From assembly GCF_020515525.1 (NCBI RefSeq), contig NZ_JAIYEP010000037.1:1-41379 (forward strand): a stretch of DNA of 41,379 nucleotides. The letters run 5' to 3'. This DNA is from Rhodococcus yananensis. Its GTDB lineage: Bacteria > Actinomycetota > Actinomycetes > Mycobacteriales > Mycobacteriaceae. The notes under the pieces are model-generated. The model saw only the letters and a list, made by a program, of their open reading frames with translations, did no database searches and had not been told where the DNA came from. Numbering within the stretch: the stretch's first letter is position 1; the number at the start of each line of letters is the position of its first letter. Below, piece by piece: positions 498-15,727 of this stretch. Both the position numbers and the translations under genes were made by a program.

Positions 498-655
498 CCG
501 TCGACGCCATCATCCGAAAGCATGTTCGAAGTGTAGCCGGACCCTCCGACAAGAAATGAAAATCCACCAGAAGTGGAAATCCGGACGGTGCTTCCGATCT
601 GGAGAACCCCCATTCGGGTTGACGCTCATCGTCACACGTGGGACCATCCCTGCAC

Positions 656-1387
656 CGACCTGAATACAGGTCGACCCCGGCTGGTGCTGGAACACCGAAC
701 CGGGGTCTGGGCACACGACAGAACGGAACTGTCATGCACCGTAGGGTGGAGTCTATCCACACGCCCCCAGGGGGCGCTTCTCATGGTTCGGTCTTCGATA
801 CCGACCCTCTTCGTCTCACCTCGCCGGGGTCTTCGCTGACGTCCTGATCTTCCGAGCCTCTCGACCCATCCGGTCGAGGGGCCCGAGGTGTTTCGTTTCG
901 ACGTGCGCGCGGGCCGTTCCGGTAGCCGCGGCGCGTCGGGCATTCGTCGCTCATCACCCGAGGTCCGACGTCAGCGCAATTCGACGCTGCGCGCAGGGGT
1001 GCCTTCCCGTGCGTGAAACCGACTGGGCGCCAGTACCTTCGTCTCCACAGCTGGCGGTGGAGCACCCGCTCGTGAGGGTCGACACGAACGACCGGGTTCA
1101 GCGTGAGCCGCACGTCACCTCCGACGTGGGGCCAGAAGCGTTGGCCGAGATGGTCTATCGGGGTATGGCGACCGGGCAGCTGTGGGGAAGGGGCCGAAGG
1201 CAAGCTCAGGGACCCGCAGGGTCTCCGTACGGTCGGGCACAGCCGCCCGCAGGGCGTCGTCTGGCCAGGCCACCGAGCCCGGGCAGAACCCCATCGAGTT
1301 CCCGGCCGAGAGTTGAGGAGCAGCCCCGCTTACTGCGGGCCGGACTGTAGCCCCCCGTGGACTGGTTTCGTGCACCTCCGCAGGGGG
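656..1387 (+). ncRNA. Candidate large structured non-coding RNA, about 730 nt
   Basis: No ORF here looks like a protein, and in-frame codons show no actinobacterial bias. Instead the + strand folds into consecutive perfect or near-perfect stems: 656-662/667-673; 673-680/700-707 with inner 683-686/693-696; 717-721/729-733; 746-750/756-760; 762-767/771-776; 789-792/800-803; 817-823/884-890 enclosing 857-866/872-881; 908-912/926-930; 934-939/965-970; 972-976/985-989; 1022-1026/1030-1034; 1043-1048/1057-1062; 1111-1116/1123-1128; 1130-1134/1142-1146; 1174-1177 plus 1179-1184 with 1238-1243 plus 1245-1248 enclosing 1209-1215/1219-1225; 1325-1329/1335-1339; 1352-1361/1377-1387. The wobble pairs at 859/879, 1210/1224 and 1358/1380 are G-U on the + strand but would be A-C on the minus strand, which fixes the likely orientation. 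Boundaries are approximate. I do not recognise the class. Group II introns, RNase P RNA and tmRNA were considered and do not fit. The stretch 498-655 shows no gene. Confidence 0.55.
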
Positions 1388-1394
1388 ATTGAAA

Positions 1395-1634
1395 TCAAGG
1401 CAGGAGATCGAAGTACTGCGGACGGGCCTTCATTGCGTGGATAAGAAGTTCGTTTCCACTGTCGAAACGCAGTACGACTAGTTCCAGTAGACGGCCCTTC
1501 CGGTCGAAACCGAGTCGGAATTCTCGCGTGGGATGGTCGTCATCGAGGTCGGCTGCATAGACGTGATGCTGAGCCGCGTGGAGGCTGTCGGTCTCGTCGA
1601 TTCCATGCTTGAGTGCGGATTTATGTGCCTTCAC
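1395..1634 (-). CDS. Toxin of a type II toxin-antitoxin pair
   Basis: 79 residues starting at GTG. The body E-F-R-L-G-F-D-R-K-G-R-L-L-E-L-V-V-L followed by the C-terminal L-I-H-A-M-K-A-R-P-Q-Y matches a small actinobacterial protein family annotated as toxins. Its size and fold pattern resemble BrnT/DUF4258-like RNase toxins. The start overlaps the stop of the upstream ribbon-helix-helix gene by 4 nt (GTGA), which is the usual antitoxin-then-toxin arrangement with translational coupling. The likely role is cleavage of cellular RNA when free of antitoxin, but catalytic residues cannot be assigned with confidence. The gene ends only a few bases from the 3' side of the structured RNA candidate, which is transcribed towards it. 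Confidence 0.7.
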   Translation of the reverse strand: MKAHKSALKHGIDETDSLHAAQHHVYAADLDDDHPTREFRLGFDRKGRLLELVVLRFDSGNELLIHAMKARPQYFDLLP

Positions 1635-1891
1635 GCGACCTGAGTCCAGGCGCGGATCGCTTCTCGAATCGCCTCCGACCTGGACACATGCTCCTTCTCT
1701 GCCCGCGCGTTCAGTGCCTGCAGCAACGCTTCGTCCATGCGGACCGGGACCACTGTTGCGGGGCCGTCTCCGATGGTCGGGCGACCACGCTTACGTAAGG
1801 TGGGGACGTCGTAGCCTGCCTCGGCTTCGTTGGCCCAGCCTTCGATCATCTCGTCGGTGACGGGGGTTCCGTCGATCGTCTCACCAGCCAT
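1631..1891 (-). CDS. Ribbon-helix-helix (CopG-type) antitoxin
   Basis: 86 residues from the ATG that opens M-A-G-E-T-I-D-G. A longer in-frame extension upstream is rejected because it lacks protein-like sequence and would read through the promoter. The C-terminal half (about 45-80: V-P-V-R-M-D-E-A-L-L-Q-A-L-N-A-R-A then S-R-S-E-A-I-R-E-A-I) is a ribbon-helix-helix DNA-binding fold. The N-terminal half probably wraps the toxin. It should neutralise the adjacent toxin and repress its own promoter. The gene seems to be translated without a leader, because a TACACT -10 box lies just 7 nt upstream of the ATG. Confidence 0.78.
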   Translation of the reverse strand: MAGETIDGTPVTDEMIEGWANEAEAGYDVPTLRKRGRPTIGDGPATVVPVRMDEALLQALNARAEKEHVSRSEAIREAIRAWTQVA

Positions 1892-1898
1892 ACTCAAT

Positions 1899-1904
1899 AG
1901 TGTA
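1899..1904 (-). promoter_or_regulatory. Probable -10 box (TACACT) of the toxin-antitoxin operon
   Basis: On the minus strand TTACACTATTGAGT precedes the ATG. TACACT sits 7 nt before the start codon, so transcription should begin at or next to the ATG (leaderless). TACaCT and AGTA form a small dyad that could be the antitoxin operator. No good -35 is seen. Confidence 0.45.
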
Positions 1905-2081
1905 ATACGAAATGGGGCTGGCCTGAACTCGCACGTAGAAGGCCAATACGCCACGAGCGCCGCACCGACGGCTACTGGTCCGGTCGTAAGTCGACCCAGC
2001 TCGCTCGGAGGTACTACTGGCGGCGGTCGTAGCGCGGCGCGCGCGCTGCCTGAGGTTGTGTGCGTTCGTTTGCAGCAATCG

Positions 2082-2660
2082 TCAGGCGTCGGTGGCTCGC
2101 CCGAGGACATGCGCCGCGAACGCACGGTTGTGGTACTGCGCGTACGGGCCGCGACCCTTGCCGACGAGCAGCTCGGCTAGGGGGCGGATCGCGGCGGCGA
2201 GAGGCAGGCCGAAGAACTGTTCGTCGGCCCCATCGTCGGACAGGAACCAGTCGATGACGACACCGTCGCCGTCCGCCGACGCCATCCCGGTGCGATGGAA
2301 ACGCAGCAGTGGGAGGCTGTCCTCCAATTGCTCGACGGTCTTCGAGGTGGCGGCGCCGAGAGCGGACTCCGACACATACAGGGCGATGCGGTAGTCCACG
2401 ATGTCGTTTCCCTCGAGGTAGCGCTCGACGTACAGCACTTCCATCGGCCCGACGTTCAGCGTGAAGAGACGTTGCATCTGGGCGGTCCTGTTCGTGGTGG
2501 GGAGCGCGCTCAGCGTCCACCGGTCCACTTCCGCGCCGGCCGGGTCGTCGAAGGCGTCGGCCAAGAAGTCGGCGACGAGGTCGACTCCGGGGTCGAAGAA
2601 CGGGTCCCGTTGCAGTTCGGCGAAGTTCTCGTCGCTGGCGGAAGGGTGGAGTGTTTTCAC
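2082..2660 (-). CDS. Protein of unknown function in the restriction locus
   Basis: 192 residues starting at GTG, preceded by a GAGGAC ribosome-binding site and only 13 nt after the mrr stop, so it is very probably co-transcribed with the restriction genes. I do not recognise the family. The protein is acidic, with no signal peptide, no membrane segment and no obvious enzymatic motif. It opens with Asp/Phe-rich helices (F-F-D-P-G-V-D-L-V-A-D-F-L-A-D-A-F) and has a central beta-rich part (M-E-V-L-Y-V-E-R-Y-L). Its position suggests an accessory factor of the Mrr or type I system, but that is inference from context only. Confidence 0.6.
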   Translation of the reverse strand: MKTLHPSASDENFAELQRDPFFDPGVDLVADFLADAFDDPAGAEVDRWTLSALPTTNRTAQMQRLFTLNVGPMEVLYVERYLEGNDIVDYRIALYVSESALGAATSKTVEQLEDSLPLLRFHRTGMASADGDGVVIDWFLSDDGADEQFFGLPLAAAIRPLAELLVGKGRGPYAQYHNRAFAAHVLGRATDA

Positions 2661-2673
2661 GGGTGTCCTCGGT

Positions 2674-3612
2674 TCATTCGAAGTAGTCTTCGTCCACTTC
2701 GACGACGGTGAAGGTCTGCCGGGTCTGCACGGCCACTCCGTATCGGATCATCAACGACGCCAAGCGCCCACCATCGATGAGGATGATGCGGGTGCCGATG
2801 TTCTGCGCGTACTCGCGGGCACCGGAGGTGAAGGAGCTGGTGGTGATGAATACACCGCGGGCGGCACCGACGCCGTGCAGGGCACCGACGAACGCCTGAA
2901 TCTCCGGCCGACCAACTGTATTGTCTGCGGCGTAGCGCTTGGCCTGCACGTAGATGCGTTCGAGTCCGAGGGGGTCCTGATCGATGACCCCGTCCACGCC
3001 GCCGTCACCGGAGCCGCCGATGCGGGTGGCCTTTCCCTCGGTACCGCCGTATCCCATGGCTACGAGCACGTCGAGGACGGACTGCTCCAGAAAGTCGGGG
3101 TGCTGCCCGCGCAGTCGTGTCAGCAAGTCTGTCGCGACCTCCGAATGCAACCGAGTGACGCCACTCTCGATCTGTTCGAGAGGGTCAGCTTCACTCTCGT
3201 CCTGTGCGGCAGTACTGGCCTGGCCGGGTTCGGATTTCGATGTACTCCGGACTACGGGAACGTAGTCCTGGTACGCGGGAATAGCTTTCAGCGTTTTCTC
3301 GGTGATTCCGTCCGGGTGCTGCGCGAGCAGGGCGCGGCCGGTGTCGGTGATGGTGAACGTGGCGCGTGCCGGTTTGTCGACGAGTTGCGCACGGAAGAGT
3401 CCGCTCAAGGTCCATCCGATCCTGTTGTCGAAGCGGCTCTGTCCGGACGCCAGCGCCTCAGCCCGCTGCTCGGCCGTGAGGCCGACATGATCTGCGACTG
3501 CTTCGTGCAACTCTCGCTTCCGCCACGTTGCGCCGTCAGCGAGCACCTCCAGCACTGGAGTAAGAAAGCCGGACCACACCGGCATCGCCGACACGGGGCC
3601 CGGCGCCGTCAC
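2674..3612 (-). CDS. mrr: Mrr-family restriction endonuclease
   Basis: 312 residues. The N-terminal part (about 10-95) is a winged-helix Mrr_N-like DNA-binding domain with the pattern W-x-G-F-L-T-P-V-L-E-V-L. The C-terminal part (about 165-300) is the PD-(D/E)XK Mrr catalytic domain, showing G-S-G-D-G-G-V-D-G-V-I (Asp203/Asp207) and Y-V-Q-A-K (Gln223, Lys225), the expected catalytic set D...QxK. Mrr enzymes cut DNA carrying foreign methylation (type IV). The start overlaps the hsdS stop by 4 nt (ATGA), so the nuclease is made from the same message as the type I specificity subunit. This placement, with no HsdR nearby, is unusual. Confidence 0.9.
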   Translation of the reverse strand: MTAPGPVSAMPVWSGFLTPVLEVLADGATWRKRELHEAVADHVGLTAEQRAEALASGQSRFDNRIGWTLSGLFRAQLVDKPARATFTITDTGRALLAQHPDGITEKTLKAIPAYQDYVPVVRSTSKSEPGQASTAAQDESEADPLEQIESGVTRLHSEVATDLLTRLRGQHPDFLEQSVLDVLVAMGYGGTEGKATRIGGSGDGGVDGVIDQDPLGLERIYVQAKRYAADNTVGRPEIQAFVGALHGVGAARGVFITTSSFTSGAREYAQNIGTRIILIDGGRLASLMIRYGVAVQTRQTFTVVEVDEDYFE

Positions 3613-4784
3613 AGCTCGCCCCGGAAGGCGCGGGCTTGGAGGGAGGAGAAGAGGGCGTCGAGTTCGGTTAGGGCGGTGTGATGCTTCACCCGTTCGTCCA
3701 ATACCAAACCAACATGCGCTTCAAAGGCTCGCTGATGAGCCAAGGGTGGAGACGGTATTCGAATGCCTTTCACCATCGACAGATTGAGGTTCTTCTGACG
3801 TACGCCACGCTGAACGCGCCGGAATTCATCGCGACCCACAGCGACCGCGAAGTAGACGTATGGGGTCGATGCAGCGTCAGGGTTGATCGATGCAAACGCG
3901 ATCGCCTGGTTGCAAGAGCAATCCTTGGTTGCGATGCTTGACTTCAAAGCAGCTGTGTCGTACATGCCGAGCAGCAAAGAACCTGCTGGTACAGCTTTCG
4001 CGCTAGTCTCCTTGATGGCAGCTTCAGTTAGTTGTTCGTGGCTCACCGAGACATACATCTCGTTCAGTTCTCCGGACGAGAACCACGGGATGTTTCCCTC
4101 AAAGTAACTCTTCGAGGTGCGAGGCGGCGTTCCTCCGCTCTGCCACTTACCCAATTCTCCGAGTGAAACGGTCTGCAGGCCCTTCGAGTTGAACGCTGGA
4201 TGGCCGAACATGTCGATGAAGATCGAACGGGTCAGCGCGTCGAGGCGGGCGAGGGCTGCGCGGCGCTTGGCGCGGAGGGCGTCGGCGTGGTCGAGGATCG
4301 CCGCGATCCGCCGCTGCTCCTCAACCGGGGGCAGCGGAATCAACCATCGTGCGAGAGCCGCCCGTCCGAGGTGATTGATTCCAGTTCCTCGTGATCCACG
4401 CACAAACTCGCCAGACTCCGCCTCGTGACGGAAGAAATGCAGAAGGTAGCGAGAGTCCACTTGCTCACTAGGCCGAACCCGGAGGAGTGTGTTCTGGAAT
4501 GCGCAGTTGTCGAGTTCCCCTTGCCAGAGCGCGGGCTTTCCAACCTCGCGCGGTGATCCGGATGCCTCATTGAGAAGGATATCGCCGGGTTCCAGACGGA
4601 ACTGCGCCAACTCGGCGTTCGTGAAGTTCATCTCCTTCACGTCGTCGAGGAGCAGCCCACTCCACCCCACGTTGGCGGCGCGCAGGTACTTCCGCATGTT
4701 CGGGCCATCGTGATTCTTTGGTGAGCGTTGGCGCCCGAGTTTGACCTCAGCGACCTCGGCCAACGGCACGATCGTCCCGCTCAC
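3609..4784 (-). CDS. hsdS: Type I restriction-modification specificity subunit HsdS
   Basis: 391 residues with the canonical two-half layout. TRD1 is about 1-135. It is followed by the conserved helix P-L-P-P-V-E-E-Q-R-R-I-A-A-I-L-D-H-A-D-A-L-R. TRD2 starts near S-L-G-E-L-G-K-W-Q-S-G-G-T-P, and a second helix S-P-P-L-A-H-Q-R-A-F closes the protein. It defines the bipartite DNA target for HsdM. It starts at GTG and overlaps the hsdM stop by 4 nt. The two target-recognition regions (roughly 3660-4110 and 4380-4720) are visibly richer in A/T than neighbouring DNA, consistent with acquisition of specificity domains by recombination. The recognition sequence cannot be predicted from the protein. 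Confidence 0.92.
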   Translation of the reverse strand: MSGTIVPLAEVAEVKLGRQRSPKNHDGPNMRKYLRAANVGWSGLLLDDVKEMNFTNAELAQFRLEPGDILLNEASGSPREVGKPALWQGELDNCAFQNTLLRVRPSEQVDSRYLLHFFRHEAESGEFVRGSRGTGINHLGRAALARWLIPLPPVEEQRRIAAILDHADALRAKRRAALARLDALTRSIFIDMFGHPAFNSKGLQTVSLGELGKWQSGGTPPRTSKSYFEGNIPWFSSGELNEMYVSVSHEQLTEAAIKETSAKAVPAGSLLLGMYDTAALKSSIATKDCSCNQAIAFASINPDAASTPYVYFAVAVGRDEFRRVQRGVRQKNLNLSMVKGIRIPSPPLAHQRAFEAHVGLVLDERVKHHTALTELDALFSSLQARAFRGEL

Positions 4785-15061: not shown

Positions 15062-15727
15062 ATGGCGAATCGGACACGTAAGAGCTTGGCGCTTATCGGT
15101 ATCGGCGCTGCGGCGGTACTGAGCATCTCCGCCTGCACGTCGGACGACAGCTCCGACACCACGATGGATACGACCACCAGCACCATGACCGAAACCACCG
15201 CACCGATGGAGACCACGGAGTCGGCTGCGGCAATGCCGGCAGGCCTCGTCGGGCCCGGATGCGCCGCCTACGCAGAACAGGTGCCGACGGGCCCCGGTTC
15301 GGTTGAAGGTATGGCGCAGGAGAACGTGACCACTGCGGCATCGAACAACCCGATGCTCACCACGCTCACCGCGGCGGTCTCCGGGCAGCTCAACCCGGAC
15401 GTGAATCTCGTCGACACTCTCAACGGCGGCGAATTCACGGTGTTCGCGCCGGTGGACGACGCCTTCGCGGCGGTCGATCCCGCGACCATCGAGACGTTGA
15501 AGACCGATTCGGCGCTGCTGACCGATGTCCTCACCTACCATGTGGTCCCCGGTCAGATCGCGCCCGCCGATATCGCCGGCGAGCAGACCACCGTTCAGGG
15601 CGGCGCCGTCGAGGTCGCAGGCTCCGGTGACGAGTGGACAGTCAACGACGCCAACGTGATCTGCGGTGGCATCGAAACAGCGAACGCGACGGTCTACCTG
15701 ATCGACGGCGTCCTGATGCCGCAGTAG
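15062..15727 (+). CDS. Fasciclin-domain lipoprotein (MPT83/MPT70-like)
   Basis: 221 residues. A lipoprotein signal ends at the lipobox L-S-I-S-A-C (acylated Cys near residue 22), followed by a Thr/Ser-rich linker of about 35 residues (T-T-M-D-T-T-T-S). One FAS1 domain (about 85-221) shows the family motifs [11 protein letters not shown] and L-T-Y-H-V-V-P-G, and two Cys outside the lipobox could form a disulfide. In M. tuberculosis the homologues mpt83 and mpt70 are the main targets of SigK, and here the gene sits directly opposite the sigK operon behind a SigK-like promoter. It is a surface-exposed, probably adhesive or signalling protein. The RBS is a GAAGGGA upstream of the ATG. Confidence 0.94.

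What the first reader, a model, noticed from the sequence alone, without database searches (positions are those of the whole stretch)
656..1387. An ORF-free block of about 730 nt made of some seventeen consecutive perfect stems: candidate large structured RNA
Between the IS256 end and the toxin gene, nearly every 20-40 nt stretch folds back on itself. The strongest hairpins are 657-673, 673-707, 857-881 (10 bp) and 1209-1225, with longer closing helices 817-823/884-890 and 1174-1184/1238-1248. Three G-U pairs exist only on the + strand. Many loops are small (GCA, CAG, AATA). Random high-GC DNA rarely gives such a density of exact stems. Large ornate RNAs (GOLLD, ROOL, OLE) are known from bacteria and phages, often in mobile DNA. 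I cannot match this one to any of them. Location in a defence island next to a toxin-antitoxin pair raises the possibility of a mobile-element or anti-phage RNA.
Basis: partly seen in the sequence, partly recalled or inferred. Interest (0 to 1): 0.87.

Follow-up and report, generated by a model that had tools for sequence, protein, structure and literature searches.

The report
New phage-type RNA with small gene
This stretch of Rhodococcus DNA encodes a previously undescribed, strongly structured RNA of about 600 bases that also carries a tiny gene, occurs in nearly every genome of its genus searched here, and has relatives in a phage and in phage-like mobile elements.

Summary
The structured RNA is real. 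A unit at window 604-1262 (+), not 656-1387, recurs in 17 of 18 genomes of the genus; contig titles name Rhodococcus. Folding energy alone is weak (z -2.08; 1 of 20 shuffles as good). Comparison is decisive: over 49 copies of the 3' core, 27 of 34 pairs show compensatory changes and 91.9% of cells pair; slid controls reach at most 14 pairs and 52.2%. The best covarying pairs form a pseudoknot that the search model lacks. No Rfam family matches.

The block is not ORF-free. In 35 of 35 full-length copies a 28-49-codon ORF (here 734-847) keeps frame and stop across nine lengths. Before it lie a LexA-type box (28 of 35 with at most one mismatch) and TTGAC; a terminator-like hairpin ends the unit.

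Divergent copies sit in Gordonia phage SallySpecial, a prophage-like locus and a satellite-type element. Best reading: an SOS-controlled dual (peptide plus RNA) transcript of phage or satellite origin, settled in Rhodococcus chromosomes. Function is unknown; no expression data were available.

The parts
604..615 (+). LexA/SOS-type operator, degenerate in this copy (GAAC-N4-ATTC)
   Evidence: Exact GAAC-N4-GTTC at the homologous place in 21 of 35 full-length copies, one mismatch in 7 more including this one; the centre varies while the arms are kept. Upstream of the best LexA match of the same genome lies GAAC-N4-GTTT. That this is the actinobacterial LexA consensus is recalled.
619..623 (+). 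TTGAC, -35-type promoter element; a weak -10-like stretch lies at about 643-648
   Evidence: TTGAC found in 35 of 35 copies, 3 nt after the box in this copy; the -10 assignment is inference from conserved columns.
657..672 (+). 5' hairpin 1
   Evidence: 199 of 206 cells paired in A5.
673..707 (+). 5' leader hairpin 2 with inner hairpin 683-696 (GGTGC..AACACC)
   Evidence: 280 of 280 and 140 of 140 cells paired, invariant in Rhodococcus; by eye the arms vary compensatorily in L053, L055, L056, L168, L169 of another genus; the same kind of leader precedes other genes on a plasmid and in 5 viral contigs.
717..733 (+). Hairpin 3, loop with a purine-rich Shine-Dalgarno-like stretch, directly before the ATG
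   Evidence: 173 of 175 cells paired; the Shine-Dalgarno role is inference.
734..847 (+). Conserved small ORF, 37 aa: MHRRVESIHTPPGGASHGSVFDTDPLRLTSPGSSLTS
   Evidence: Open with homologous start and stop in 35 of 35 full-length copies; nine lengths, all multiples of 3, while neighbouring spacers are not; stop TAA in 2 copies and TAG in 1 in place of TGA.
746..760 (+). Hairpin 4 inside the ORF start
   Evidence: 168 of 175 cells paired.
857..881 (+). Hairpin of the variable middle part
   Evidence: 327 of 346 cells paired, 7 of 10 pairs with double changes.
961..1062 (+). Start of the 3' domain (TCCGACG motif; hairpins 972-989, 1023-1033, 1043-1062)
   Evidence: 165 of 165, 130 of 140 and 204 of 208 cells paired; pair 992-1013 is the best covarying pair in the Rhodococcus set; a TCCGACG..AACC motif lies upstream of 23 of 42 divergent or other cores.
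1063..1232 (+). 3' core covered by models R1 and R2
   Evidence: R1 match 169.8 bits (the window is among the sequences R1 was built from); 27 of 34 pairs with compensatory change over 49 copies.
1111..1128 (+). Hairpin in the 3' core
   Evidence: 206 of 208 cells paired; helix 4: 95.8% paired, 7 of 8 pairs with double change.
1145..1173 (+). H-type pseudoknot: helix 1145-1148/1158-1161; second helix 1152-1155/1170-1173
   Evidence: 1154-1171 standard in 71 of 71 copies with 6 pair types and 1155-1170 in 94%, both E 0.000 in a tree-aware test; 4 of 4 pairs of the second helix with double change, 94.9% paired, although not part of the model.
1209..1225 (+). Hairpin near the 3' end
   Evidence: 236 of 243 cells paired.
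1244..1262 (+). Terminator-like hairpin 1244-1256 and what follows; a T-rich tail is seen in part of the other copies
   Evidence: 155 of 171 cells paired; sequence similarity ends here in most copies; terminator function is inference.

Best explanation
It is a free-standing transcription unit of phage or phage-satellite origin that makes a dual-purpose RNA. SHOWN: a highly structured 3' domain with a pseudoknot under RNA-level selection; a structured leader; a small frame-conserved ORF between them; a LexA-type box and promoter-like site in front of most Rhodococcus copies; a terminator-like end; relatives in a phage, a prophage-like locus and an element of satellite type. INFERRED: after DNA damage LexA is cleaved and the unit is transcribed; ribosomes make the short peptide from the leader-controlled ORF; the 3' domain folds into a compact pseudoknotted RNA that is the conserved working part and acts in trans, as a free RNA or bound to protein, during induction of phage-like elements. 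In phages and mobile elements the ORF is exchangeable and can be absent. Rhodococcus has kept and multiplied the unit (1 to 5 R1 matches in each of the 17 genomes that have it).
For: Copies: 3 in the own genome, 17 of 18 genus genomes, 43 of 301 family genomes and 10 of 31 genera with model R1. Structure. ORF: (35 of 35 copies in frame, nine lengths, stop codons interchanged). Operator: 28 of 35 with at most one mismatch, and a box of the same type before lexA. The RNA rather than the peptide is the constant part: in L053, L055 and L056 the leader hairpins remain but the homologous ATG is gone, and ORFs before divergent cores fall into different small families. Mobile link: SallySpecial carries the core between gp21 and HNH/terminase; L166 has repressor, terminase, portal and capsid relatives around it; the G265 element holds integrase, excisionase-like protein, capsid and small terminase within about 10 kb; in 12 chosen RNA-bearing genomes 7 of 8 relatives of that small terminase lie within 3.3 kb of an R1 match.
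Against: No expression data. Codon-position bias in the ORF is weak (5487/6065/6962 differences at positions 1/2/3) and 8699 of 10811 codon differences change the amino acid, so the peptide sequence itself is hardly conserved. No exact LexA-type box in the up to 900 nt before 42 divergent or other cores, so SOS control is indicated at most for Rhodococcus; the window's own box is degenerate and 7 of 35 copies lack a good one. Rhodococcus copies showed no phage genes nearby when searched with the proteins of one phage and of the G265 element, apart from one weak capsid-like match beside L051. Only 7 of 51 small-terminase places in 301 genomes lie within 3.3 kb of an R1 match, and R2 found the RNA beside 1 of 20 of the others examined, the G271 copy already known. 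Mode of action is inference.
Confidence: 0.5

Rival explanations
1. The peptide is the product and the RNA serves it: an SOS-induced small-peptide gene whose structured leader and 3' domain only control translation and stability of its own mRNA, as in type I toxin systems.
For: LexA-type box; frame conserved in 35 of 35 copies; a hydrophobic 49-aa ORF at this position in L077 and a similar one in L149.
Against: The 3' domain is far better conserved than the peptide; the start codon is lost in L053, L055, L056 while the RNA is kept; the ORFs differ between elements. An antisense partner was not looked for.
Confidence: 0.2
2. Element-function RNA: the 3' domain is a packaging or hijacking factor of small phages and satellites (working like phi29 pRNA, recalled, or like the abundant noncoding RNAs of the PLE satellites), and chromosomal copies are leftovers or decoys.
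For: Position next to HNH/terminase at the cohesive ends in SallySpecial, before terminase in L166, within 3.3 kb of a small terminase in 7 of 8 cases.
Against: Most small-terminase places lack it (44 of 51 have no R1 match within 3.3 kb; 19 of 20 regions without an R2 match); Rhodococcus copies stand alone yet are kept in 17 of 18 genomes.
Confidence: 0.15
3. Anti-phage RNA: in Rhodococcus the unit is a chromosomal defence element switched on by phage-caused DNA damage.
For: A type IV restriction enzyme and a type I specificity subunit lie near the window copy; relatives of that S subunit occur near 8 copies in all, this one included.
Against: Many of those copies share neighbouring genes, so they probably reflect one ancestral site; no control for chance was run; other copies lie elsewhere.
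Confidence: 0.1
4. A DNA-level element (attachment, packaging or replication site) that only looks like RNA.
For: Some divergent copies lie near tRNA-like ends or cohesive ends.
Against: A covarying pseudoknot, 92 G-U against 24 A-C cells on one strand, an ORF, a promoter-like front and a terminator-like end.
Confidence: 0.03

Closest known systems
GOLLD RNA
   Same: Large structured RNA of phages and prophages, conserved 3' region with a less conserved 5' region, function unknown (passages of PMC12286853); reported in mycobacteria in a cluster with an HNH gene (passages of PMC6582537).
   Different: No Rfam match in the window or in 10 relatives; shorter; carries a frame-conserved ORF and a LexA-type box; sits alone in chromosomes.
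ROOL and OLE RNAs
   Same: Elaborate folds; ROOL is phage-borne with pseudoknots (passages of PMC12286853); OLE is about 600 nt (abstracts in a search listing).
   Different: No Rfam match; a frame-conserved small ORF is not among the features I saw described (passages and abstracts only).
Noncoding RNAs of PLE satellites and phage ICP1
   Same: Most abundant transcripts of a phage satellite and of its phage are noncoding; a role in gene regulation is suggested (passages of PMC7567579).
   Different: No sequence comparison made; different hosts; no LexA-type box or ORF in what I read.
SAS/ESAS leaders of cluster K mycobacteriophages
   Same: Short conserved sequences, about half with inverted repeats, directly before start codons of many phage genes (passages of PMC3203893); in position like the 5' leader here.
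   Different: Different sequence; the leader here has nested hairpins.
LexA-controlled small-peptide genes with structured leaders (TisB type, recalled)
   Same: SOS operator, short ORF, structured leader.
   Different: Large covarying 3' domain and exchangeable, mostly non-hydrophobic peptides.

Membership tests
Any Rfam 15 family, including GOLLD and ROOL | Covariance-model score at or above the gathering cut-off | tested here: not met
   0 matches in the window; in 10 relatives only a tRNA away from the element in L054; permissive scans of three stretches gave only hits far below the cut-offs, E 0.23 to 4.2.
Structured RNA family | Compensatory base changes beyond shuffled, slid and tree-aware controls | tested here: met
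   280 double-change cells against 80.2 shuffled and at most 61 slid; pseudoknot pairs at E 0.000. With the Rhodococcus copies alone only one sound pair passes.
Purely noncoding RNA | No conserved ORF | tested here: not met
   35 of 35 full-length Rhodococcus copies keep the frame; three copies of another genus have lost the start.
SOS regulon member | LexA box in the promoter | tested here: met
   28 of 35 copies with at most one mismatch to GAAC-N4-GTTC; the consensus is recalled. The window copy itself has one mismatch.
SOS regulon member | Induction by DNA damage and LexA binding | not testable with these tools
   No expression data.
Phage-satellite component | Integrase, excisionase, capsid and small terminase in a compact element | tested here: met
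   G265 element. The window copy showed no such genes nearby in the searches made.
Phage-satellite component | Needs a helper phage, lacks its own tail genes | not tested
   Element ends and the full gene set were not mapped.
GOLLD/ROOL-type multimer | Homo-oligomer or nanocage | not testable with these tools
   Needs cryo-EM or native gels.

The most novel reading that the evidence does not exclude
A new class of dual-function cassette of actinobacterial phages and satellites: a constant pseudoknotted RNA coupled to exchangeable micro-proteins, captured by Rhodococcus as an SOS-switched chromosomal unit that interferes with, or is used by, phages and satellites.
Probability: 0.25. Interest if true: 0.92.

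Novelty: new variant of a known kind. Interest (0 to 1): 0.77.

Why it matters
Large structured RNAs of phages (GOLLD, ROOL) have no known function. This family offers multi-copy chromosomal versions with a predictable inducer (DNA damage), a 166-position core model and a pseudoknot that can be broken and restored, in a non-phage genomic setting. It would also be an RNA component of actinobacterial satellite-type elements and a case of one transcript under both frame and RNA-structure selection.

Tried and rejected
Rejected: Rfam membership. Fold energy as proof: weak. A purely coding origin: codon-position differences are nearly even and the 3' domain shows covariation instead. A tree-aware covariation test on the Rhodococcus copies alone showed two pairs below E 0.5: 992-1013 (E 0.000) and a non-canonical one, 769-780 (E 0.033); these copies vary too little, so the wider set was needed. 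In that wider test the fourth to sixth pairs stood only at E 0.25 to 0.28, and the sixth is not a standard pair. PHROGs: no hit for 9 of 9 ORFs from upstream of cores (the tenth protein was the L077 capsid, which matched); 2 of 10 downstream ORFs with a hit. Patterns for other core types found nothing in viral contigs. R2 beside 20 further small-terminase places found only the G271 copy already known. Pairing between leader and core was considered by eye and not pursued. A packaging-RNA role and an anti-phage role stay as rivals.

Seven paper searches listed no paper that appears, from titles and abstract starts, to describe this RNA; exact searches for its leader and core motifs and for the phage name gave three papers, one of which holds one core string (a razor-clam gene-family paper) and two name the phage; none was opened. 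The library holds open-licence papers only. Of the papers cited I saw passages of four and listings of the rest.

Rows dropped: the 35-copy set leaves out L051 (same genus, no 5' match and no start), truncated copies (L048, L108, L109, second match in L045), divergent R1 matches in the same genus (L159, L167, L170, L171, L172, L180, L181) and copies of other genera. One search used 71 core copies after removing exact duplicates and left out the weakest divergent matches (L164, L175 to L181). One search used the 49 R1 matches at E 1e-7 or better over 48 chosen loci.

Full report
WHAT WAS CHECKED. The finding claims an ORF-free block of about 730 nt of consecutive stems at 656-1387. Folding energy on its own barely supports it: the + strand of 650-1262 folds at -303 kcal/mol against a shuffled mean of -283.1 (z -2.08; 1 of 20 shuffles at least as good), and the opposite strand scores better against its own shuffles (z -4.99; 0 of 20). 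So 'density of stems' is not evidence here; relatives are.

RELATIVES. BLASTN of 480-1394 finds two more copies in the own genome at 85-86% identity. In the genus 17 of 18 genomes have a match; the near full-length copies are 75-92% identical, and many genomes hold several. Similarity starts near window 601-637 and ends at 1256-1262 in most copies; L025, which shares the neighbourhood, continues to 1394. The real unit is therefore about 604-1262.

ANATOMY. An alignment of 35 full-length copies (A5) gives, in order: (i) a palindrome GAAC-N4-GTTC, exact in 21 of 35 copies, one mismatch in 7 (including the window), absent or poorer in 7; its centre varies while its arms do not. Upstream of the best LexA match of the same genome lies GAAC-N4-GTTT, one letter off that palindrome. 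(ii) TTGAC in 35 of 35 copies. (iii) Three leader hairpins, 657-672, 673-707 with an inner hairpin, and 717-733, paired in 199 of 206, 280 of 280 and 173 of 175 cells. (iv) A small ORF, 734-847 here. (v) A variable middle with hairpin 857-881 (327 of 346 cells; 7 of 10 pairs with double changes). (vi) A highly conserved 3' domain from about 961 to 1225. (vii) A terminator-like hairpin, 1244-1256 (155 of 171 cells).

THE ORF. In 35 of 35 copies an ORF runs from ATGCACCGT to a homologous stop. Its length takes nine values (84 to 147 nt without the stop), all multiples of three, whereas the spacer before it and two spacers after it vary freely in frame; the stop is TAA in two copies and TAG in one, TGA in the other 32. 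That is good evidence for translation. Against it, substitutions are spread almost evenly over codon positions and 8699 of 10811 codon differences change the residue, so the peptide sequence is weakly constrained. One same-genus copy, L051, has no start and was left out.

THE 3' DOMAIN. A model (R1, 166 positions) built from 30 copies (A1) finds relatives in 43 of 301 genomes of the family, 10 of 31 genera, and in 5 of 394 genomes of the class, two of them outside the family (one of the two weak at E 2.5e-4); a broader model (R2) found 9 of 348 in the order, one outside the family with a weak score. A tree-aware covariation test of my own on 71 core copies, aligned by sequence only, put two pairs of a pseudoknot at the top: 1154-1171 (71 of 71 standard, six pair types) and 1155-1170, both E 0.000, then 1115-1124 at E 0.05; the next stood at E 0.25 or worse. 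The pseudoknot is not in the models, which instead pair 1172 and 1173 with 1185 and 1184. Counted on 49 aligned copies (A6), 91.9% of cells pair, 27 of 34 pairs have compensatory changes and 280 cells are doubly changed, against 71.8%, 18.8 and 80.2 in shuffles and at most 52.2%, 14 and 61 when slid; the second pseudoknot helix has double changes in 4 of 4 pairs. A6 is fitted to the nested model, so counts for nested helices lean towards it; the pseudoknot is free of that bias. G-U cells outnumber A-C cells 92 to 24 on the + strand.

WHERE ELSE IT OCCURS. Gordonia phage SallySpecial (15,896 bp) carries the core at 15349-15512 between gp21 and the HNH/terminase end. L166, from another family, has relatives of that phage's repressor, terminase, portal and capsid around it. 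L077, a viral-collection contig, has leader, a 49-codon ORF and the core beside what look by eye like an Mg-chelatase-like gene and a recombinase, and a capsid gene farther on. The G265 locus has the RNA about 8 kb from an integrase, with excisionase-like, capsid and small-terminase genes between. Among divergent loci, small-terminase relatives cluster in 7 and capsid relatives in 6, on the opposite strand, about 1.5 to 4.8 kb downstream. In 12 chosen RNA-bearing genomes, 7 of 8 relatives of this small terminase lie within 3.3 kb of an R1 match. The converse does not hold: of 51 such places in 301 genomes only those 7 do (an eighth, in G271, lies about 7 kb away), and of 20 regions searched with R2 only the G271 one has a match. 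So the RNA is a frequent neighbour of, not a fixed part of, such elements. A leader of this kind occurs without the core before other genes: on an Amycolatopsis plasmid and in 5 viral contigs, with no R1 match in the stretches held. ORFs before divergent cores fall into different small families; in L053, L055 and L056 the leader hairpins persist with compensatory changes (by eye) but the homologous ATG is gone, and none of 42 divergent or other cores has an exact LexA-type box in the up to 900 nt upstream.

INTERPRETATION. The constant part is the 3' RNA; leader and ORF are modules. In Rhodococcus the full unit has its own promoter-like front, LexA-type box and terminator-like end and is kept in nearly all genomes of the genus searched, without phage genes nearby in the searches made (one weak capsid-like match beside L051), which suggests domestication. 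I favour a damage-induced, dual-function transcript whose 3' RNA is the main effector. The effector step is inference. Rivals are a peptide gene with structured flanks, a packaging or hijacking RNA, and an anti-phage RNA. Eight copies near type I S-subunit-like genes, the window's among them, largely share neighbours and probably represent one ancestral site, so the defence-island argument is weak.

AGAINST WHAT IS KNOWN. The closest kinds are the phage RNAs GOLLD and ROOL (passages of PMC12286853; PMC6582537) and the abundant noncoding RNAs of the PLE satellites (passages of PMC7567579). It is like them in setting and complexity but matches no Rfam model, and it carries an ORF and a LexA-type box. 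The leader is like the start-associated sequences of cluster K phages (passages of PMC3203893) in position, not in sequence. Seven paper searches listed nothing that appears to describe it.

Noticed in passing
L154 1706-1870 and 2793-2958 (+): Two tandem copies of the core in one locus, each preceded by a similar ORF, as if an ORF-plus-RNA cassette had been duplicated.
   Followed up: no
L184-L188 (viral contigs) and L076 8001-8068: Leader hairpins of the GGTGC..AACACC kind stand before unrelated genes; ORFs in L185 and L188 look by eye like homing endonucleases. It may be a general phage leader motif.
   Followed up: partly
L164 upstream of 8049, L165 upstream of 8044: Sequence resembling the acceptor and T arm of a tRNA lies shortly before the core (seen; not run through a tRNA finder).
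   Followed up: no
L167 and L170, upstream of the leader: A tRNA-like sequence (L167) and a tRNA 3'-half-like sequence (L170) just before the cassette, suggesting an attachment site (seen).
   Followed up: no
L077 1202-3852: An Mg-chelatase-like gene (by eye) cut near its start next to the RNA, with a recombinase-like ORF directly after its other end: possibly two integrations in one gene.
   Followed up: no
window 1395-4784 (-): A small ORF pair and a 192-aa ORF without PADLOC match, then a type IV restriction enzyme and a type I specificity subunit.
   Followed up: partly
G051 (genus mate): The only one of 18 genus genomes with no match: a natural null.
   Followed up: no
window 1174-1180 and 1242-1248: GGGC.GC and GC.GCCC can pair in most copies and would compete with the terminator-like hairpin 1244-1256, a possible switch.
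   Followed up: no
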